A DNA stretch of 20,677 nucleotides from a virus, in IMG/VR virus record IMGVR_UViG_3300017706_001348, positions 1 to 20,677 of that record; one strand, given 5' to 3'. Positions 8,960-13,397 of the stretch are shown piece after piece. Position 1 is the first letter of the stretch. Every line of letters begins with the position of its first letter. Position numbers and translations under genes: made by a program. Below the pieces are notes generated by a model that was not told where the DNA came from, searched no databases, and saw nothing but the letters and a program-made list of their open reading frames with translations.

Positions 8960-10282
8960 TTAAATTACTGCGTACTCACCATACGAACCATATACTTCAA
9001 ACCACATCCGCATCATTAAGGCGTCAGCGAAATCGGGGGAACGCCCTAACTTAGTCTTCTGTATATCTTTCCCCTCAATAGCAAGTTTCTGTTGGTCTTT
9101 ATCTATTTTGTCCCTTTTAATTATTTCTAATTCTTCTATTATGTTTTGTCTGTATTGTGTTTCTTCTATATATATTTTATTGGTGTTAACAAGCTCGGCA
9201 AGTTTGTAAAAACATTGTGTCTTTAAGTTTTGGTAGTTTTCCCCTTTTAAAGCTTTACTACCATTGGCAAAACCTTTACAACCACTTATACCATCAACAA
9301 CACCACCCCCGACTCCATCTTGGTCAACTATTATTTTACTATTTGGTATAGAGTTTTGTTTAGATAATAATTTTATTTCATTCACTATTTCTGTGATTGT
9401 GTTTTTTGCGAATGTTATTATTTTCTCAACCCTTAACCCACTCCACAATACAATGACTGTTTTATCAGCACCCAAACGTGCCACATCGCAAGTAATAAAC
9501 CTTGCCCCCGGTTGAACGAAATCGTTAGTGAAAAGGTTCATAACACTATCGTAATCAAATAATAAAGCGTTATCATCAATGTATTCCCAATTTCCAAACA
9601 ACAACCTTTCTTTACTTATTTTGTCAAGCTTTTCTAATTGTTTTACATAATGTTTAGAAATAGCCTTATTATCTGTTACAAGCGATTTAACGAACTTTTT
9701 ATGTTTCGGTAGGGTGTTTTGTAGTGATGGCTTGTAAAACTCTGTGTAAAGCCAATTTTTAGATGGATTACACGTCAATAGGGTTTTTGGTATAAGGTTG
9801 TAATCATCTAACTTGTATCTGATACGTGAATTTAAAATGTTTATTGCCTTTTGTGTTACTTCGGCGCACTCGTCAACAAAACAATCTGTAATTTCCAAAC
9901 CACCTAAAGAAGTAAACAGCGGGTCTGATGGATAATAAAATAAATCTTTTAATAATATTTCAGACTCATTGTAAAACTTAATTGTACTATCACCGGCATT
10001 GAAAACAAAATCAACACCCGGAGTCAATCCGCAATAATTAATTGCCACTTCAAAGAAAGTATTTAGAGTTGTTTGTTTTAAGTTTTTTAATTTAGCCCTA
10101 CCAATTACAGAACGTGTTCCCGGGTAGCGTAATCTTCTGCTTATTTGCCACAGACAACCGGTAAAAGTTTTAGAACCACCGGCTCCACCACCAAACAAAA
10201 TTTCTGTCGTAGTGTTGTCTTCCAAATACTTAAAGCATTCTATCTGTTTTTTAAAAAGCTTAATCTTCGGGTTCTTCATCAA
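8960..10282 (-). CDS. terL: Terminase large subunit, 440 aa
   Basis: This is the ATP-driven DNA packaging motor with endonuclease activity. Residues 31-39 are a Walker A loop of the terminase variant (GGGAGGSKT). Walker B is FVDECAEV at about 135-142 with D137/E138, followed by the coupling motif LLTCNPSKNW at about 168-178. The C-terminal RNase H-like nuclease carries ITCDVARLGADKT (D266), a second acidic strand IIVDQDGVGGGVV and the final RSPDFADALMMRMWF, whose aspartates complete the metal site. Length is normal for a phage terminase. The gene overlaps the small subunit gene by 23 nt if the first of two adjacent ATGs (10282, 10279) is used. Best-supported gene call in the window. Confidence 0.95.
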   Translation of the reverse strand: MMKNPKIKLFKKQIECFKYLEDNTTTEILFGGGAGGSKTFTGCLWQISRRLRYPGTRSVIGRAKLKNLKQTTLNTFFEVAINYCGLTPGVDFVFNAGDSTIKFYNESEILLKDLFYYPSDPLFTSLGGLEITDCFVDECAEVTQKAINILNSRIRYKLDDYNLIPKTLLTCNPSKNWLYTEFYKPSLQNTLPKHKKFVKSLVTDNKAISKHYVKQLEKLDKISKERLLFGNWEYIDDNALLFDYDSVMNLFTNDFVQPGARFITCDVARLGADKTVIVLWSGLRVEKIITFAKNTITEIVNEIKLLSKQNSIPNSKIIVDQDGVGGGVVDGISGCKGFANGSKALKGENYQNLKTQCFYKLAELVNTNKIYIEETQYRQNIIEELEIIKRDKIDKDQQKLAIEGKDIQKTKLGRSPDFADALMMRMWFEVYGSYGEYAVI

Positions 10283-10613
10283 ACGGCATTATATCAATTT
10301 TAATTCTATCATCCGAACTCACATTTATATCTGACCTTTCTATGTAGCCCCTTTTCTTCCCTTTTGTTTTAAGATAAAATATTGTTGCCGATGTGTTTCC
10401 ATCTCCTATTTGTTCGTGGAGTTTTGACTCTGCGAAATCTAAAGCAATATTTTGTATATCGTTAACTGCTTCCGAAAATTCTTTGTCGTCTTTTAACCAT
10501 TGATAATATTGGGTTCTTCCTATGCCAACTTTTTTACAAGCTGTCGTTACTATTCCTAAAGATTTTTCAAGTGCTTCAAGAATAGCTTTTTTATGCTGTT
10601 CGGTTTTGTTCAT
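10260..10613 (-). CDS. terS: Terminase small subunit, 117 aa
   Basis: A 117-residue DNA-binding protein. Residues about 18-40 form a helix-turn-helix (GIVTTACKKVGIGRTQYYQW), the pattern in which terminase small subunits bind the packaging site. This is followed by the typical DDKEFSEAVNDIQNIALDFAE region and GDGNTSATIFYLKTKGKKRGY, the 'N-x-x-A-x-x-F-x-L-k-x-x' stretch used for oligomerisation. An acidic tail (MPFDEEPED) may contact the large subunit. The ATG is 1 nt after the stop of the dioxygenase gene, so packaging genes are read from the same transcript as the modification cassette. The large subunit overlaps its end. Confidence 0.88.
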   Translation of the reverse strand: MNKTEQHKKAILEALEKSLGIVTTACKKVGIGRTQYYQWLKDDKEFSEAVNDIQNIALDFAESKLHEQIGDGNTSATIFYLKTKGKKRGYIERSDINVSSDDRIKIDIMPFDEEPED

Positions 10614-10614
10614 T

Positions 10615-11427
10615 TTATATTCCTTTAAAAGCTTTTAATCCATAGAAGATAAGGCTGTTTCTGTAACCGCCATCTTTCAATGGAACAATAGGTGTTACGC
10701 CGTGTACATTTCGCCAAGCCGGATATACAAGCATAGAATTATCAGCTTGTTCAAATGTGGCGTTATACTCCGGGACATTTAAACACCCGCCATCAGCATT
10801 ACTTCTTTTTGTTAAAATAACATTTACAGAACCTTTTATGTTACCGGTGTCTTTATGGTATGGTGCTGATATATTATAGTTTGAAATACTACTCGTGAAT
10901 AGGTTTCCAAACCGCCATTGCTTTTTCACATCATTGTATAATTCTGTTTGATTTGTATGTAAATGTGGTGTGAGTTGTTTTATTATTTTTTCTGACTCAA
11001 CACAAGCCCCCCACATCGCTTTGATAAATGTTTTAGACCTTTTATCCCTATGTACTTGTGATATGTTTGGGTATGGCCTTTTAAATTGTGGTTTCGGCGG
11101 TATGCTTCCTAAAATAACAGACATTTGACTTGTTCCTAATGCTCTCGCTTGTGCGCGTGTCATACCCGGGTTGGCTTGTTGATGTTTTAAGACATCACTT
11201 CGGTCTAATGGTGTTTTATGTACGTTATCACTATTGAACTCTTTATTCGCTATTAGAAGTAACGCCTTTAGTTTTTTACTATATTTTTCTACATCCTTTA
11301 TATAAAAGCCAATAATTTCACCATCAGATTCTAATAAGCAGTCTTCTGTTACGTTTGGTTTAAAGTATGGGCACTCTTTTCCAATTTTAACATTATTTTC
11401 AACCGGCGTGAGTTTTATGGTTTTCAT
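10615..11427 (-). CDS. TET/JBP-like 2-oxoglutarate/Fe(II) dioxygenase, probable DNA base oxidase, 270 aa
   Basis: The C-terminal half carries a full set of 2OG-Fe(II) dioxygenase residues: H191-x-D193 (APYHKDTG), distal H242 (NVHGVTP) and R256 (GGYRNSLIFYGLK) for 2-oxoglutarate. The spacing and the elements GGCLNVPEY and HGVTPI resemble the TET/JBP family, which oxidises the 5-methyl group of pyrimidines in DNA, rather than prolyl hydroxylases. Residues 1-130 are a family-specific extension with Lys-, Pro- and Arg-rich parts that could bind DNA. The start overlaps the kinase stop as ATGA, and the small terminase follows after 1 nt. The neighbouring P-loop kinase and ParB-like genes match the type of cassette linked to base hypermodification in phages. 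The actual substrate (5-methylcytosine or thymine) cannot be read from the sequence. No DNA methyltransferase or glycosyltransferase is in the window. Confidence 0.75.
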   Translation of the reverse strand: MKTIKLTPVENNVKIGKECPYFKPNVTEDCLLESDGEIIGFYIKDVEKYSKKLKALLLIANKEFNSDNVHKTPLDRSDVLKHQQANPGMTRAQARALGTSQMSVILGSIPPKPQFKRPYPNISQVHRDKRSKTFIKAMWGACVESEKIIKQLTPHLHTNQTELYNDVKKQWRFGNLFTSSISNYNISAPYHKDTGNIKGSVNVILTKRSNADGGCLNVPEYNATFEQADNSMLVYPAWRNVHGVTPIVPLKDGGYRNSLIFYGLKAFKGI

Positions 11428-11885
11428 ACTATTTTGGTTTTAATAAGGTTTAAACAATCACCGGAATTTTTAACCACCTCATTCGGGGTGATGTTTTTAA
11501 CTCTTGTCCGTATTGTTTTTAATTGCCTTTCTGTTTGGTTGCTTCCTCTTTTTATTCTACCGGCCTCACCATCGCCATCAATTTTAATTATGTATGGTTT
11601 TGCTTTTTCTATAAAATTTTTATTCATAAACCTATCGCCCTCAAAGACTGCTGATTTGTTTTTACGTTTTATATACATCAACATTTTATCCAAATCTTTC
11701 ATTACTCCCATACTTAATTTATCGCTTCCCTCAAAAGTGCTTCCATCATATTTTCCTACGATTATGGTGTTATCGTTTTCGTGAAAACAATACAACCCTA
11801 ATTTATACCTCTTTGTGTCTTTTAACATTTGTTTCATTACCCACGTTTTTCCGACACCACATTCGCCAATAATTAATGCTATCAT
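11424..11885 (-). CDS. P-loop kinase-like protein, possible DNA-base or nucleotide kinase, 153 aa
   Basis: A compact P-loop NTPase. Walker A is GECGVGKT at residues 7-14 directly after the first strand. A substrate-side motif IIVGKYDGSTFEGSDKLS lies at about 41-58. A Walker B-like strand SAVFEGDRF is at 78-86. An Arg-rich lid, GRIKRGSNQTERQ and IRTRVK, is at about 109-130. This layout is that of small phage nucleoside/nucleotide-kinase-like proteins. P-loop kinases that phosphorylate hydroxymethyl-pyrimidines in DNA are known from thymidine-hypermodifying phages, and the adjacent dioxygenase would make such hydroxymethyl groups. It is joined by ATGA overlaps to the ParB-like gene before it and the dioxygenase after it. 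A free-nucleotide kinase is the main alternative. Confidence 0.7.
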   Translation of the reverse strand: MIALIIGECGVGKTWVMKQMLKDTKRYKLGLYCFHENDNTIIVGKYDGSTFEGSDKLSMGVMKDLDKMLMYIKRKNKSAVFEGDRFMNKNFIEKAKPYIIKIDGDGEAGRIKRGSNQTERQLKTIRTRVKNITPNEVVKNSGDCLNLIKTKIV

Positions 11886-12451
11886 AGTTTATCTCTTTCT
11901 GATTTTAAATATTCTAATATCATTGAACCAATATCAGCACCCCTTTCTCTAAAAAATTTTATCACCTCTGTTGCTTCATCGTATTGGTCTGACTCAAATT
12001 CTATTTGTATAGCCCTTTTCACATTACCCTCTTTGTCTTCCAACTCACCACCCAAATCAAAATCATCTAAAACACTATAATCAACTACATCATCCGGTTG
12101 CCAAACATCCAAACCCCAATCCGTAATCTGTTGGTTGTCCCAATCGTTAGCCAACTCGTCCCAATCCCACTCACCGAAACCTACATTGTCTTTAATTATA
12201 AATTCTTTCTTTTGTTTTTCAGTTAGGTTTTCAGCTATTTTAACCGGCACCTCTTTTATACCGGCTTCTAAACAAGCTTTATACCTCATATTACCACCAA
12301 GTATAGTAAGCTTTTCGTCAACCACTATTGGCCGTAACTCAAGCATTTCCGGGAACTCTTTTATAGACTTGACAAGTTTATCAAATTTACCCCCGCGTAT
12401 AACTCTTGGGTTACTTTTGTTTGGCTTTAATTCTTTAATTTTCTTTTTCAT
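11882..12451 (-). CDS. ParB/Srx-fold (ParB N-terminal domain-like) protein, 189 aa
   Basis: Residues 1-75 match a ParB N-terminal domain: KPNKSNPRVI near residue 10-18, PIVVDEKLTILGGNMRYKA at about 41-59 (equivalent of the GG-x-R-R-x-x-A ParB box, which binds a nucleotide) and IKEVPVKI. Then comes KKEFIIKDNVGFGEWDWDELANDW at about 82-104, a stretch that phage and mobile-element ParB-like proteins share. The C-terminal third is acidic (VLDDFDLGGELED) and ends in a helical tail. There is no helix-turn-helix as in plasmid-partition ParB and no fused methyltransferase. Phage proteins of this type are often next to DNA-modifying enzymes or terminases. It starts as TAATG on the zinc-protein stop and is coupled by ATGA to the kinase. 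Nuclease, kinase or CTPase-like roles are all possible. Confidence 0.75.
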   Translation of the reverse strand: MKKKIKELKPNKSNPRVIRGGKFDKLVKSIKEFPEMLELRPIVVDEKLTILGGNMRYKACLEAGIKEVPVKIAENLTEKQKKEFIIKDNVGFGEWDWDELANDWDNQQITDWGLDVWQPDDVVDYSVLDDFDLGGELEDKEGNVKRAIQIEFESDQYDEATEVIKFFRERGADIGSMILEYLKSERDKL

Positions 12452-12873
12452 TACTTTTCATATTCTGTTACTATTACTTTTAATCTATCTAAATTTTTCT
12501 TAACACAAGGTGCGCAATTATTACCGCCGGTGTTTAATTTTAATCCTAAATACTTTTCAGATAATCTTCTGACTTGTTGTTGTTGTACGTTTGTGATAGA
12601 AACATTTGTGGAATCTAATAATTGTTTTACTTCAAGGTATTCTTCGTGTGTAAGTTGTAAGCCTTTCCATTTATTTATTGGGCATTTAGCAAATTGTATT
12701 GCAGATTTAACATCCATAAAACAACCGCACAACTCGTATTCTTTTTTATTATACTTAACCTTACCACCAATGATAGGAGTGCCACAAGTACGCGTATTTG
12801 TTTTAAAAAACTTACAAGACTCACATATTTCAATTCGTTCCCTCGCTAAGTTTCTTGATGAAAATATATTCAT
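12451..12873 (-). CDS. Cys-rich probable zinc-binding protein, 140 aa
   Basis: A 140-residue protein with a Cys-rich first half: ICESCKFF (C-x2-C), TRTCGTP, ELCGCFM and FAKCPINKW. Together these give enough ligands for one or two zinc sites. The segment KCPINKWKGL is a recurrent ending of small zinc-ribbon proteins in Bacteroidota phages. The second half is helical with a Gln run (NVQQQQVRRLSEKYL) and another Cys pair (CAPC) near residue 119. It starts on the sigma-factor stop (ATGA) and ends on the ParB-like start (TAATG). Co-translation with a sigma factor would fit a transcription partner, but that is inference. No named family is claimed. Confidence 0.65.
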   Translation of the reverse strand: MNIFSSRNLARERIEICESCKFFKTNTRTCGTPIIGGKVKYNKKEYELCGCFMDVKSAIQFAKCPINKWKGLQLTHEEYLEVKQLLDSTNVSITNVQQQQVRRLSEKYLGLKLNTGGNNCAPCVKKNLDRLKVIVTEYEK

Positions 12874-13397
12874 AATTTTTCTTTGATTTTGTTTCTGATT
12901 TTTCTGACTGTGTTGTATATAGATATTTTTGGTATTCCGGTTTCTTTAGATAATTCTTCGTAAGTCATATCACTTTCGTAATACAATAAAAACAAGGTTC
13001 TTTCGTATTCATCAAATTTTGAAATAATATCTAAAACCTTTTGGTATTTAATTTTGTCGTATGATAAATCTGTCGTTACCTTTAGGTGTAAAACATATTC
13101 CATCTCGTGTGGTTGCATATTTATTGTGTTCTTTTTGTACTCAATATTTTTTTTATAAAATTGAGATTTTTTTGAAAGACACCTCACGGCAATAATTTTT
13201 TTCACATACGACTTAGAAGAACCGGCTGTTTCAACCCACAATAAATGATTAGAGTTTGATGTAATTAATTGCAAGAAAACGTCTTGAACAACATCCTCTG
13301 ATAAATTTTTATCCTTTAAAAAACTATAAGCAAAACCAACGTATTCATCATAATCAATGTATAGAATTTCTGTTATTGTATAGGCTTTACTTTTCAA
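12870..13397 (-). CDS. Phage-encoded ECF-like sigma-70 family factor, 175 aa
   Basis: A two-domain small sigma factor. Residues about 15-60 match region 2, which melts the -10 element and binds RNA polymerase: DEYVGFAYSFLKDKNLSEDVVQDVF, here quoted in two pieces as DEYVGFAYSFLKDK and NLSEDVVQDVF. Residues about 120-175 match region 4, the -35-binding helix-turn-helix: FDEYERTLFLLYYESDMTY then EELSKETGIPKISIYNTV and a basic end (RKIRNKIKEKL). Length is normal for ECF factors. It sits just upstream of the modification and packaging/tail genes, which lack obvious host-type promoters, so it may direct late transcription. It starts 1 nt after the VRR-NUC stop and overlaps the zinc protein by ATGA. 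No anti-sigma gene is visible. Confidence 0.8.
   Translation of the reverse strand: MKSKAYTITEILYIDYDEYVGFAYSFLKDKNLSEDVVQDVFLQLITSNSNHLLWVETAGSSKSYVKKIIAVRCLSKKSQFYKKNIEYKKNTINMQPHEMEYVLHLKVTTDLSYDKIKYQKVLDIISKFDEYERTLFLLYYESDMTYEELSKETGIPKISIYNTVRKIRNKIKEKL

What the first reader, a model, noticed from the sequence alone, without database searches (positions are those of the whole stretch)
10615..12451. ParB-like protein, P-loop kinase and TET/JBP-like dioxygenase as a candidate DNA hypermodification cassette
Seen: three genes joined by ATGA overlaps. One is a ParB-fold protein (LGGNMRYKA box), one a P-loop kinase (GECGVGKT, Arg-rich lid), and one a dioxygenase with H191-x-D193, H242 and R256 in TET/JBP-like context. 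They lie directly upstream of terS. Known: phage TET/JBP enzymes oxidise 5-methylpyrimidines in DNA, and P-loop kinases phosphorylate hydroxymethyl bases in thymidine-hypermodified phages. Inference: the dioxygenase makes a 5-hydroxymethyl base, the kinase activates it, and the ParB-like protein is a target-binding or further chemistry partner. I do not know of a described flavobacterial system with exactly this trio and no methyltransferase or transferase next to it.
Basis: partly seen in the sequence, partly recalled or inferred. Interest (0 to 1): 0.78.

Follow-up and report, generated by a model that had tools for sequence, protein, structure and literature searches.

The report
Swappable phage DNA base-modification cassette
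A marine phage carries a compact three-gene set that probably oxidises a base in its own DNA (most likely thymine) and then puts a phosphate on it; close relatives keep the first and last genes but swap the middle one for a sugar- or methyl-transferring enzyme, so these phages seem to change the chemical coat of their DNA by exchanging one gene.

Summary
The three genes are real and correctly read. The dioxygenase is a TET/JBP enzyme: its AlphaFold model (pLDDT 93.9) matches TET2 at Z 19.1 and NgTet1 at 18.7, ahead of every other 2OG fold. The kinase has a nucleotide-kinase fold and shares signature motifs with phage kinases linked to base hypermodification; 48-62% identical relatives sit beside, or are fused to, amino acid:DNA transferase (ADDT). 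The ParB-fold protein is confirmed, its role inferred. New here: ParB-[X]-TET-terS is conserved in dozens of marine phage contigs, and X is interchangeable: TAGT-type glycosyltransferase (71), kinase (6, window included) or FkbM methyltransferase (2). Near-identical phages show clean kinase-for-glycosyltransferase swaps. No such phage examined encodes a C5-methyltransferase or thymidylate synthase, whereas the Melnitz-type TET clade has a C5-methyltransferase next door in 64 of 64 informative loci; thymine is therefore the likelier substrate. A probably complete 28.6-kb relative has ParB, kinase and TET but no detected transferase, so the phosphate may be the final cap rather than an activated intermediate. 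The general kind (phage TET/JBP + ParB + kinase before terminase) is already described in actinophages; this short, slot-swapping version is a new variant.

The parts
11882..12451 (-). ParB-fold protein (189 aa): ParB_N domain, no HTH found, short conserved C-terminal domain; presumed DNA-binding or targeting partner, constant first gene of the cassette
   Evidence: Pfam ParB_N 29.2 bits (cut-off 26.3); profile hits Spo0J/Noc/ParB structures over residues about 1-100, best E 1.6e-9; also matches the N-terminal part of ParB-DNA methyltransferase fusions: phrog_498 E 8e-27, PADLOC MTase_II E 2.8e-10
11424..11885 (-). P-loop kinase (153 aa), predicted kinase of the 5-hydroxymethyl group of a base in DNA; occupies the exchangeable middle slot
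   Evidence: AlphaFold pLDDT 89.8, nucleotide/nucleoside-kinase fold, Z about 10; hhalign 98.5% to the Melnitz phage kinase and 96.9% to the PF18751 kinase of Tonitrus; 48-62% identical relatives beside or fused to ADDT
11844..11867 (-). Walker A of the kinase, residues 7-14 GECGVGKT
   Evidence: nearly invariant in 19 relatives
11709..11756 (-). kinase signature, residues 44-59 GKYDGSTFEGSDKLSM (followed by E82-G-D-R-F86)
   Evidence: G44, G53, S54, D55, E82-G83-D84-R85 invariant in 19 relatives; G44, F51, G53, D55, E82, G83 and R85 also in the Melnitz and Tonitrus kinases
10615..11427 (-). TET/JBP 2OG-Fe(II) dioxygenase (270 aa), predicted to hydroxylate the 5-methyl group of a pyrimidine in DNA
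   Evidence: Pfam Tet_JBP E 2.8e-8 and only Tet_JBP in all 36 relatives; PDB profile hits only TET2 and CMD1; VIA Z 19.1 to TET2, 18.7 to NgTet1, next class FTO 14.3
10840..10857 (-). Fe-binding H191-x-D193 and N196 (HxDxxN; HxDxxD in the C5-methyltransferase-linked clade)
   Evidence: invariant H and D; N in all 123 window-type and actinophage TET loci, D in all 71 Melnitz-type loci with the motif
10702..10704 (-). third Fe ligand H242
   Evidence: invariant in 36 relatives
10660..10662 (-). 2-oxoglutarate-binding R256
   Evidence: invariant in 36 relatives
10260..10613 (-). terminase small subunit, conserved downstream neighbour (context, not part of the chemistry)
   Evidence: PHROG terminase small subunit E 5e-9; directly after TET in nearly all loci long enough to show it
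8960..10282 (-). terminase large subunit (context)
   Evidence: Pfam Terminase_3; nearest isolates Flavobacterium phage 11b and Cellulophaga phage phi10:1, 46%

Best explanation
It is a compact post-replicative DNA base-hypermodification module of a flavophage-like marine phage. The TET/JBP enzyme hydroxylates the 5-methyl group of thymine in replicated phage DNA (T to 5-hydroxymethyluracil); the kinase phosphorylates that hydroxyl (5-phosphomethyl- or pyrophosphorylmethyl-uracil); the ParB-fold protein guides or couples the enzymes on DNA shortly before packaging. The kinase sits in an exchangeable 'cap' slot that relatives fill with a TET-associated glycosyltransferase or an FkbM O-methyltransferase, so related phages can change the group hung on the same hydroxymethyl base, presumably to escape restriction. 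Shown here: TET/JBP fold and catalytic residues; kinase fold and family motifs; conserved order; clean gene-for-gene swaps; no detected C5-methyltransferase, thymidylate synthase or ADDT in these contigs. Inferred: thymine as substrate, phosphate as final product, ParB function, protective role.
For: TET identity. Kinase: Melnitz phage C5-MTase-TET-x-kinase, ADDT linkage in L099/L100/L102/L104/L105/L107/L109/L110/L112/L113 and ADDT-kinase fusions in L099 and L100, kinase fold. Swaps: L085 (kinase) and L076 (glycosyltransferase) are 92.6% identical in ParB and 95.1% from 12 nt before TET through terS, with nothing alike between; L080 and L059, 94% and 90%; on the TET tree the kinase label needs 6 changes, at least 4 forced by well-supported branches. 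Slot families: TAGT in 22 of 26 glycosyltransferase representatives, FkbM. Thymine: no PF00145 and no PF00303 in the flavophage-like contigs searched or in complete phages MED4-184, Tonitrus, Serendipitous, LittleMunchkin and LilMcDreamy, with Melnitz and M6 as positive controls (PF00145); C5-MTase in 64 of 64 Melnitz-type TET loci not cut at the TET gene against 0 of 123 others. Precedent: the known 5-HMU DNA kinase phosphorylates hmU but not hmC in DNA (PMC6457204), and phosphorylated 5hmdU blocks many restriction enzymes (PMC7653180).
Against: No biochemistry. The kinase does not match the HMUDK Pfam model, and hhalign to M6 gp54 is weak (42%). HxDxxN also occurs in TET2, a 5mC enzyme, so the residue does not prove thymine. 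The window is a fragment, so a distant C5-methyltransferase or transferase is not excluded; the 28.6-kb relative is complete only by a 148-nt end overlap. The presence/absence counts come from related sequences and from searches biased to close relatives.
Confidence: 0.6

Rival explanations
1. Same pathway, but the phosphate is only a leaving group: a host amine or amino acid, or a transferase encoded elsewhere, displaces it to give an aminoalkyl- or amino-acyl-type thymine as in phages M6, ViI and PhiW-14.
For: More distant relatives of the kinase are linked or fused to ADDT, with a PLP-fold enzyme beside them in some; Tonitrus carries ADDT plus kinase; PhiW-14 uses a pyrophosphoryl-hmU intermediate (PMC5977210).
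Against: No ADDT in the window (20.7 kb), G016 (24.3 kb), G021 (29.8 kb) or G020 (28.7 kb, probably complete); no ADDT, PLP-type, FAD, FkbM, TAGT or C5-MTase homologue in the window or G020; slot-mates are single-step cappers.
Confidence: 0.3
2. The TET enzyme acts on 5-methylcytosine (made by a host or an unseen phage methyltransferase), giving 5hmC that the kinase phosphorylates.
For: The Melnitz-type relatives pair a C5-methyltransferase with TET, and in Melnitz with a homologous kinase; TET2 has Asn at the HxDxxN position; 5mC is the best-known TET substrate.
Against: C5-methyltransferase not found in any flavophage-like contig searched or in the complete MED4-184 genome and four actinophages; the clade with C5-methyltransferase has a different active-site residue (Asp); the characterised 5-HMU kinase ignores hmC (PMC6457204).
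Confidence: 0.2
3. The kinase is an unrelated accessory gene that merely inserted between ParB and TET, and acts on a small molecule, RNA or protein.
For: Swaps show the slot is a recombination site; the fold is a generic nucleotide-kinase fold.
Against: The slot is filled by enzyme classes that can modify a hydroxyl, including the TET-associated glycosyltransferase family; translational overlap on both sides; repeated ADDT linkage and fusion of the same kinase family; co-occurrence with TET in Melnitz and actinophages.
Confidence: 0.07

Closest known systems
Actinophage ParB-TET/JBP-(pyrophosphorylase/ADDT)-kinase operon before terminase (Gordonia phage CaiB, PMC9302106; Rhodococcus phage Tonitrus, PMC11955845), predicted in Iyer et al. 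2013 (cited there; not read here)
   Same: ParB-fold gene, TET/JBP gene and P-loop kinase in overlapping genes just before terminase; no C5-methyltransferase or thymidylate synthase in the genomes checked (Tonitrus and Gordonia phage LittleMunchkin)
   Different: In Tonitrus and CaiB the kinase comes after TET and a pyrophosphorylase/ADDT gene is present; here the kinase is between ParB and TET and no transferase is found. TET proteins are 25-35% identical.
TET-associated glycosyltransferase (TAGT, PF20691) cassettes, e.g. Mycobacterium phage Serendipitous and most marine relatives of the window
   Same: ParB + TET + one tailoring gene + terminase; identical flanks in near-identical marine phages
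   Different: The tailoring gene is a glycosyltransferase, not a kinase
Thymidine hypermodification of phages M6, ViI, SP10, PhiW-14 (HMUDK, ADDT)
   Same: A P-loop kinase that phosphorylates the hydroxymethyl group of a base in DNA
   Different: Those start from hmdUTP made by a phage synthase (M6 has PF00303) and carry transferases; here the hydroxymethyl group would be made in DNA by TET and no transferase is seen
Phage C5-methyltransferase-TET systems (Methylophilales phage Melnitz type)
   Same: TET plus a homologous kinase
   Different: C5-methyltransferase adjacent in all loci with upstream sequence, HxDxxD active site, GIY-YIG/ParB-like gene; the window lacks the methyltransferase and has HxDxxN

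Membership tests
TET/JBP (PF12851) | HxD...H...R double-stranded beta-helix active site | tested here: met
   H191, D193, H242, R256 invariant; best fold matches are TET2, NgTet1, CcTet and CMD1
TET/JBP (PF12851) | Pfam gathering score | tested here: inconclusive
   33.6 bits against cut-off 34.9 for the protein, but over the cut-off in the six-frame search (34.7; 35 with its frame neighbours); all 36 relatives match only this family, best 3.1e-24
TET/JBP (PF12851) | oxidises a 5-methylpyrimidine in DNA | not testable with these tools
   needs enzyme assay
5-hmU DNA kinase (HMUDK, PF18748) / Ploopntkinase3 (PF18751) | match to the family model | tested here: not met
   no PF18748 or PF18751 match for the window protein at E 0.1; PF18751 reaches only 5 of 19 relatives, best 0.006; hhalign 96.9% to a PF18751 member, 42% to M6 gp54; shares phrog_800 with M6 gp54, E 1.7e-4. 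Works like one; not filed as a member
5-hmU DNA kinase (HMUDK, PF18748) / Ploopntkinase3 (PF18751) | P-loop kinase fold with Walker A | tested here: met
ParB superfamily | ParB N-terminal domain | tested here: met
   29.2 bits > 26.3; PDB profile hits to Spo0J/Noc
ParB superfamily | HTH parS-binding domain of partition ParBs | tested here: inconclusive
   most structure matches cover only residues about 1-100 and no HTH model was hit
M6/ViI-type thymidine hypermodification | dUMP hydroxymethylase (thymidylate-synthase family) | tested here: not met
   PF00303 absent from the window and all relatives searched, found in M6 control
M6/ViI-type thymidine hypermodification | amino acid:DNA transferase (PF18724) | tested here: not met
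   absent from the window and close kinase-type contigs, present in more distant ones and controls
Phage C5-MTase-TET system | C5-cytosine methyltransferase gene | tested here: not met
   PF00145 absent in the window and relatives

The most novel reading that the evidence does not exclude
Some marine phages carry a phosphomethyl (or pyrophosphomethyl) thymine as the finished base modification of their DNA, made entirely after replication by TET oxidation plus one kinase, and phages switch between phosphate, sugar and methyl caps by exchanging the single middle gene of a fixed ParB-X-TET cassette.
Probability: 0.4. Interest if true: 0.82.

Novelty: new variant of a known kind. Interest (0 to 1): 0.66.

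Why it matters
I found no report of in-DNA thymine oxidation shown in a phage, and a phosphate-capped base as an end product would be a new DNA chemistry that adds negative charge in the major groove. The natural gene swaps give matched pairs of phages that differ in only the cap enzyme, which makes the question of why phages diversify base modifications directly testable. The kinase could also be a new reagent, and the Asn/Asp position next to the Fe-binding motif offers a testable rule for thymine versus cytosine choice in TET/JBP enzymes.

Tried and rejected
A close-relative scan with the single kinase sequence found nothing; an alignment-based scan was needed. The first count of the residue after HxD was wrong because an earlier HRD motif was picked up; redone with the correct motif. 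The label 'queuine tRNA-ribosyltransferase' (phrog_6059 and RefSeq records) for the dioxygenase was rejected: fold and Pfam say TET/JBP. The label 'terminase small subunit' (phrog_800) for the kinase was rejected: that group holds M6 gp54, which matches the HMUDK model. A defence-system reading was considered; PADLOC gives only the ParB-MTase similarity and weak chance hits. Nonlabens phages appeared among TET hits by organism name, but no cassette was found in P12024S. Isolates nearest by terL (Cellulophaga phi10:1, Flavobacterium 11b) show no cassette gene annotated near terL. Iyer 2013 and Lee 2022 were not held; Lee 2018 was not looked up; what I say of them is from citing papers or memory.

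Full report
What is there. The window is a 20.7-kb IMG/VR viral fragment. On the minus strand, 12451-10615, three overlapping genes encode a ParB-fold protein, a small P-loop protein and a 2OG-Fe(II) dioxygenase, followed by terS and terL. Both junctions within the trio are ATGA overlaps; the dioxygenase-terS junction is a 1-nt gap. The large terminase is nearest to Flavobacterium phage 11b and Cellulophaga phage phi10:1 (46%), so a Bacteroidota host is likely (inference).

The dioxygenase is TET/JBP. The Pfam search finds only Tet_JBP, at E 2.8e-8, slightly under the curated score and over it in the six-frame search. All 36 aligned relatives match Tet_JBP and nothing else. A profile of them hits only TET2 and the algal 5mC enzyme CMD1 among solved structures. 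The AlphaFold model (pLDDT 93.9) aligns with TET2 (Z 19.1), NgTet1 (18.7), CcTet (16.9) and CMD1 (16.4) before FTO (14.3) and AlkB relatives.

The kinase. Sequence models give only generic P-loop hits. The model (pLDDT 89.8) has the nucleotide-kinase fold, Z about 10 to guanylate, uridine and polynucleotide kinases. Profile comparison links it to the kinase of Methylophilales phage Melnitz (98.5%), which lies near a TET gene, and to the PF18751 kinase of Rhodococcus phage Tonitrus (96.9%), but only weakly to M6 gp54, a match to the HMUDK model (42%). Relatives with 48-62% identity lie in ParB-...-kinase-TET or TET-...-kinase loci together with ADDT (PF18724) and, in some, a PLP-fold enzyme; in L099 and L100 ADDT and kinase are one protein. 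This ties the family to modification of a hydroxymethyl base.

The slot. Among 80 viral contigs with a 63-75% identical TET (the best 80 of 123 found, so biased to close relatives), ParB comes first, TET third and terS next wherever the contig is long enough. The gene between is a glycosyltransferase in 71, the kinase in 5 and an FkbM methyltransferase in 2. Of 26 glycosyltransferase representatives 22 match TAGT. On the TET tree the kinase label needs 6 changes, at least 4 forced by well-supported branches (quick method, SH-aLRT only). The nucleotide picture is cleaner: L085 (kinase) and L076 (glycosyltransferase) are 92.6% identical through ParB and 95.1% from 12 nt before TET through terS, with no similarity between; L080 and L059 repeat this at 94% and 90%. 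A second scan, with the kinase alignment, added more contigs with the exact order ParB-kinase-TET-terS (L093-L098). The MED4-184 cyanophage record has ParB-FkbM-TET-terS-terL.

Substrate. Neither a C5-cytosine methyltransferase nor a thymidylate-synthase-family gene was found in the window, in 19 other marine contigs, in MED4-184 (38 kb) or in four complete actinophages; C5-methyltransferase was also absent from the kinase-type contigs. Melnitz and M6 served as positive controls. In the Melnitz-type clade 64 of 64 TET genes that keep their upstream sequence have a C5-methyltransferase next to them; the seven rows without it are contigs cut at or just before the TET gene. That clade has Asp three residues after the Fe-binding Asp, all 123 others have Asn. 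TET2 also has Asn there, so this is a correlation, not proof. The known 5-HMU DNA kinase phosphorylates hmU but not hmC (PMC6457204). I conclude thymine is more likely than 5mC, about 70:20, with 10 for neither.

End product. No ADDT was detected in the window (20.7 kb), G016 (24.3 kb), G021 (29.8 kb) or G020 (28.7 kb). The ends of G020 overlap by 148 nt at 99.3% inside the kinase gene, so it is probably a complete circularly permuted genome of about 28.6 kb. Homologues of TAGT, ADDT, the PLP enzyme, FAD oxidoreductase, FkbM, PIG-L and C5-methyltransferase were not found in the window or G020. Phosphorylating 5hmdU in SP8 phage DNA makes it resistant to many type II enzymes (PMC7653180), and pyrophosphoryl-hmU accumulates in DNA of a PhiW-14 mutant (PMC5977210). 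A phosphate cap as final product is therefore chemically plausible and the most novel reading not excluded; an undetected next step remains the main rival.

ParB. The profile matches Spo0J, Noc and ParB over residues about 1-100 and the N-terminal part of ParB-DNA methyltransferase fusions (phrog_498; PADLOC MTase_II). No HTH was found. A role in bringing the enzymes to DNA is inference.

Kinase tree. In a tree of 23 kinases the short-cassette and the ADDT-linked kinases are intermingled with weak support, so I draw no conclusion on whether the short form lost ADDT or never had it.

Compared with the known. ParB-TET/JBP-pyrophosphorylase-adenylate kinase before terminase is published for Gordonia phages (PMC9302106) and Rhodococcus phage Tonitrus (PMC11955845), following Iyer et al. 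2013. So the kind is known. What I did not find described is the short flavophage-like version without a transferase and the one-gene cap exchange; the library searched lacks most subscription papers, so this is a limited statement.

Noticed in passing
phrog_6059; e.g. L001:5980-6765 and L004:813-1730: TET/JBP enzymes of phages are named 'queuine tRNA-ribosyltransferase' in PHROGs and many RefSeq phage records; this is a misannotation.
   Followed up: yes
phrog_800; L086:41685-42248 (phage M6 gp54): Hydroxymethyl-base kinases, including M6 gp54 (PF18748 HMUDK match), are named 'terminase small subunit' in PHROGs and RefSeq.
   Followed up: yes
L099:4887-6419, L100:4960-6468: ADDT (amino acid:DNA transferase) fused to a kinase of the window's family, with a PLP-fold gene upstream and TET downstream: apparently a TET-based amino-acyl hypermodification locus.
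   Followed up: partly
L104:1891-3159, L105:2-931, L107:2745-4022: Two tandem ParB genes in front of TET.
   Followed up: no
L115:7075-8004: In a beta-proteobacterial MAG contig the ParB-TET slot holds a 309-aa protein with no Pfam match, possibly another sugar-transfer enzyme; L116 (Oscillatoria MAG) has ParB directly followed by TET.
   Followed up: partly
window 12870-13397: Phage-encoded ECF-like sigma factor (Sigma70_r4_2), with a conserved Cys-rich small protein (12451-12873), precedes the cassette here and in about half of the relatives.
   Followed up: no
L001 (phages MED4-184, MED4-117, P-HS2): Phages recorded on Prochlorococcus MED4 carry a 45% identical TET with the same ParB-X-TET-terS order as the marine flavophage-like contigs.
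   Followed up: partly
L103/L108 (record G020): IMG/VR lists this 28.7-kb record as linear, but its ends overlap by 148 nt at 99.3% identity; it is probably a complete genome.
   Followed up: yes
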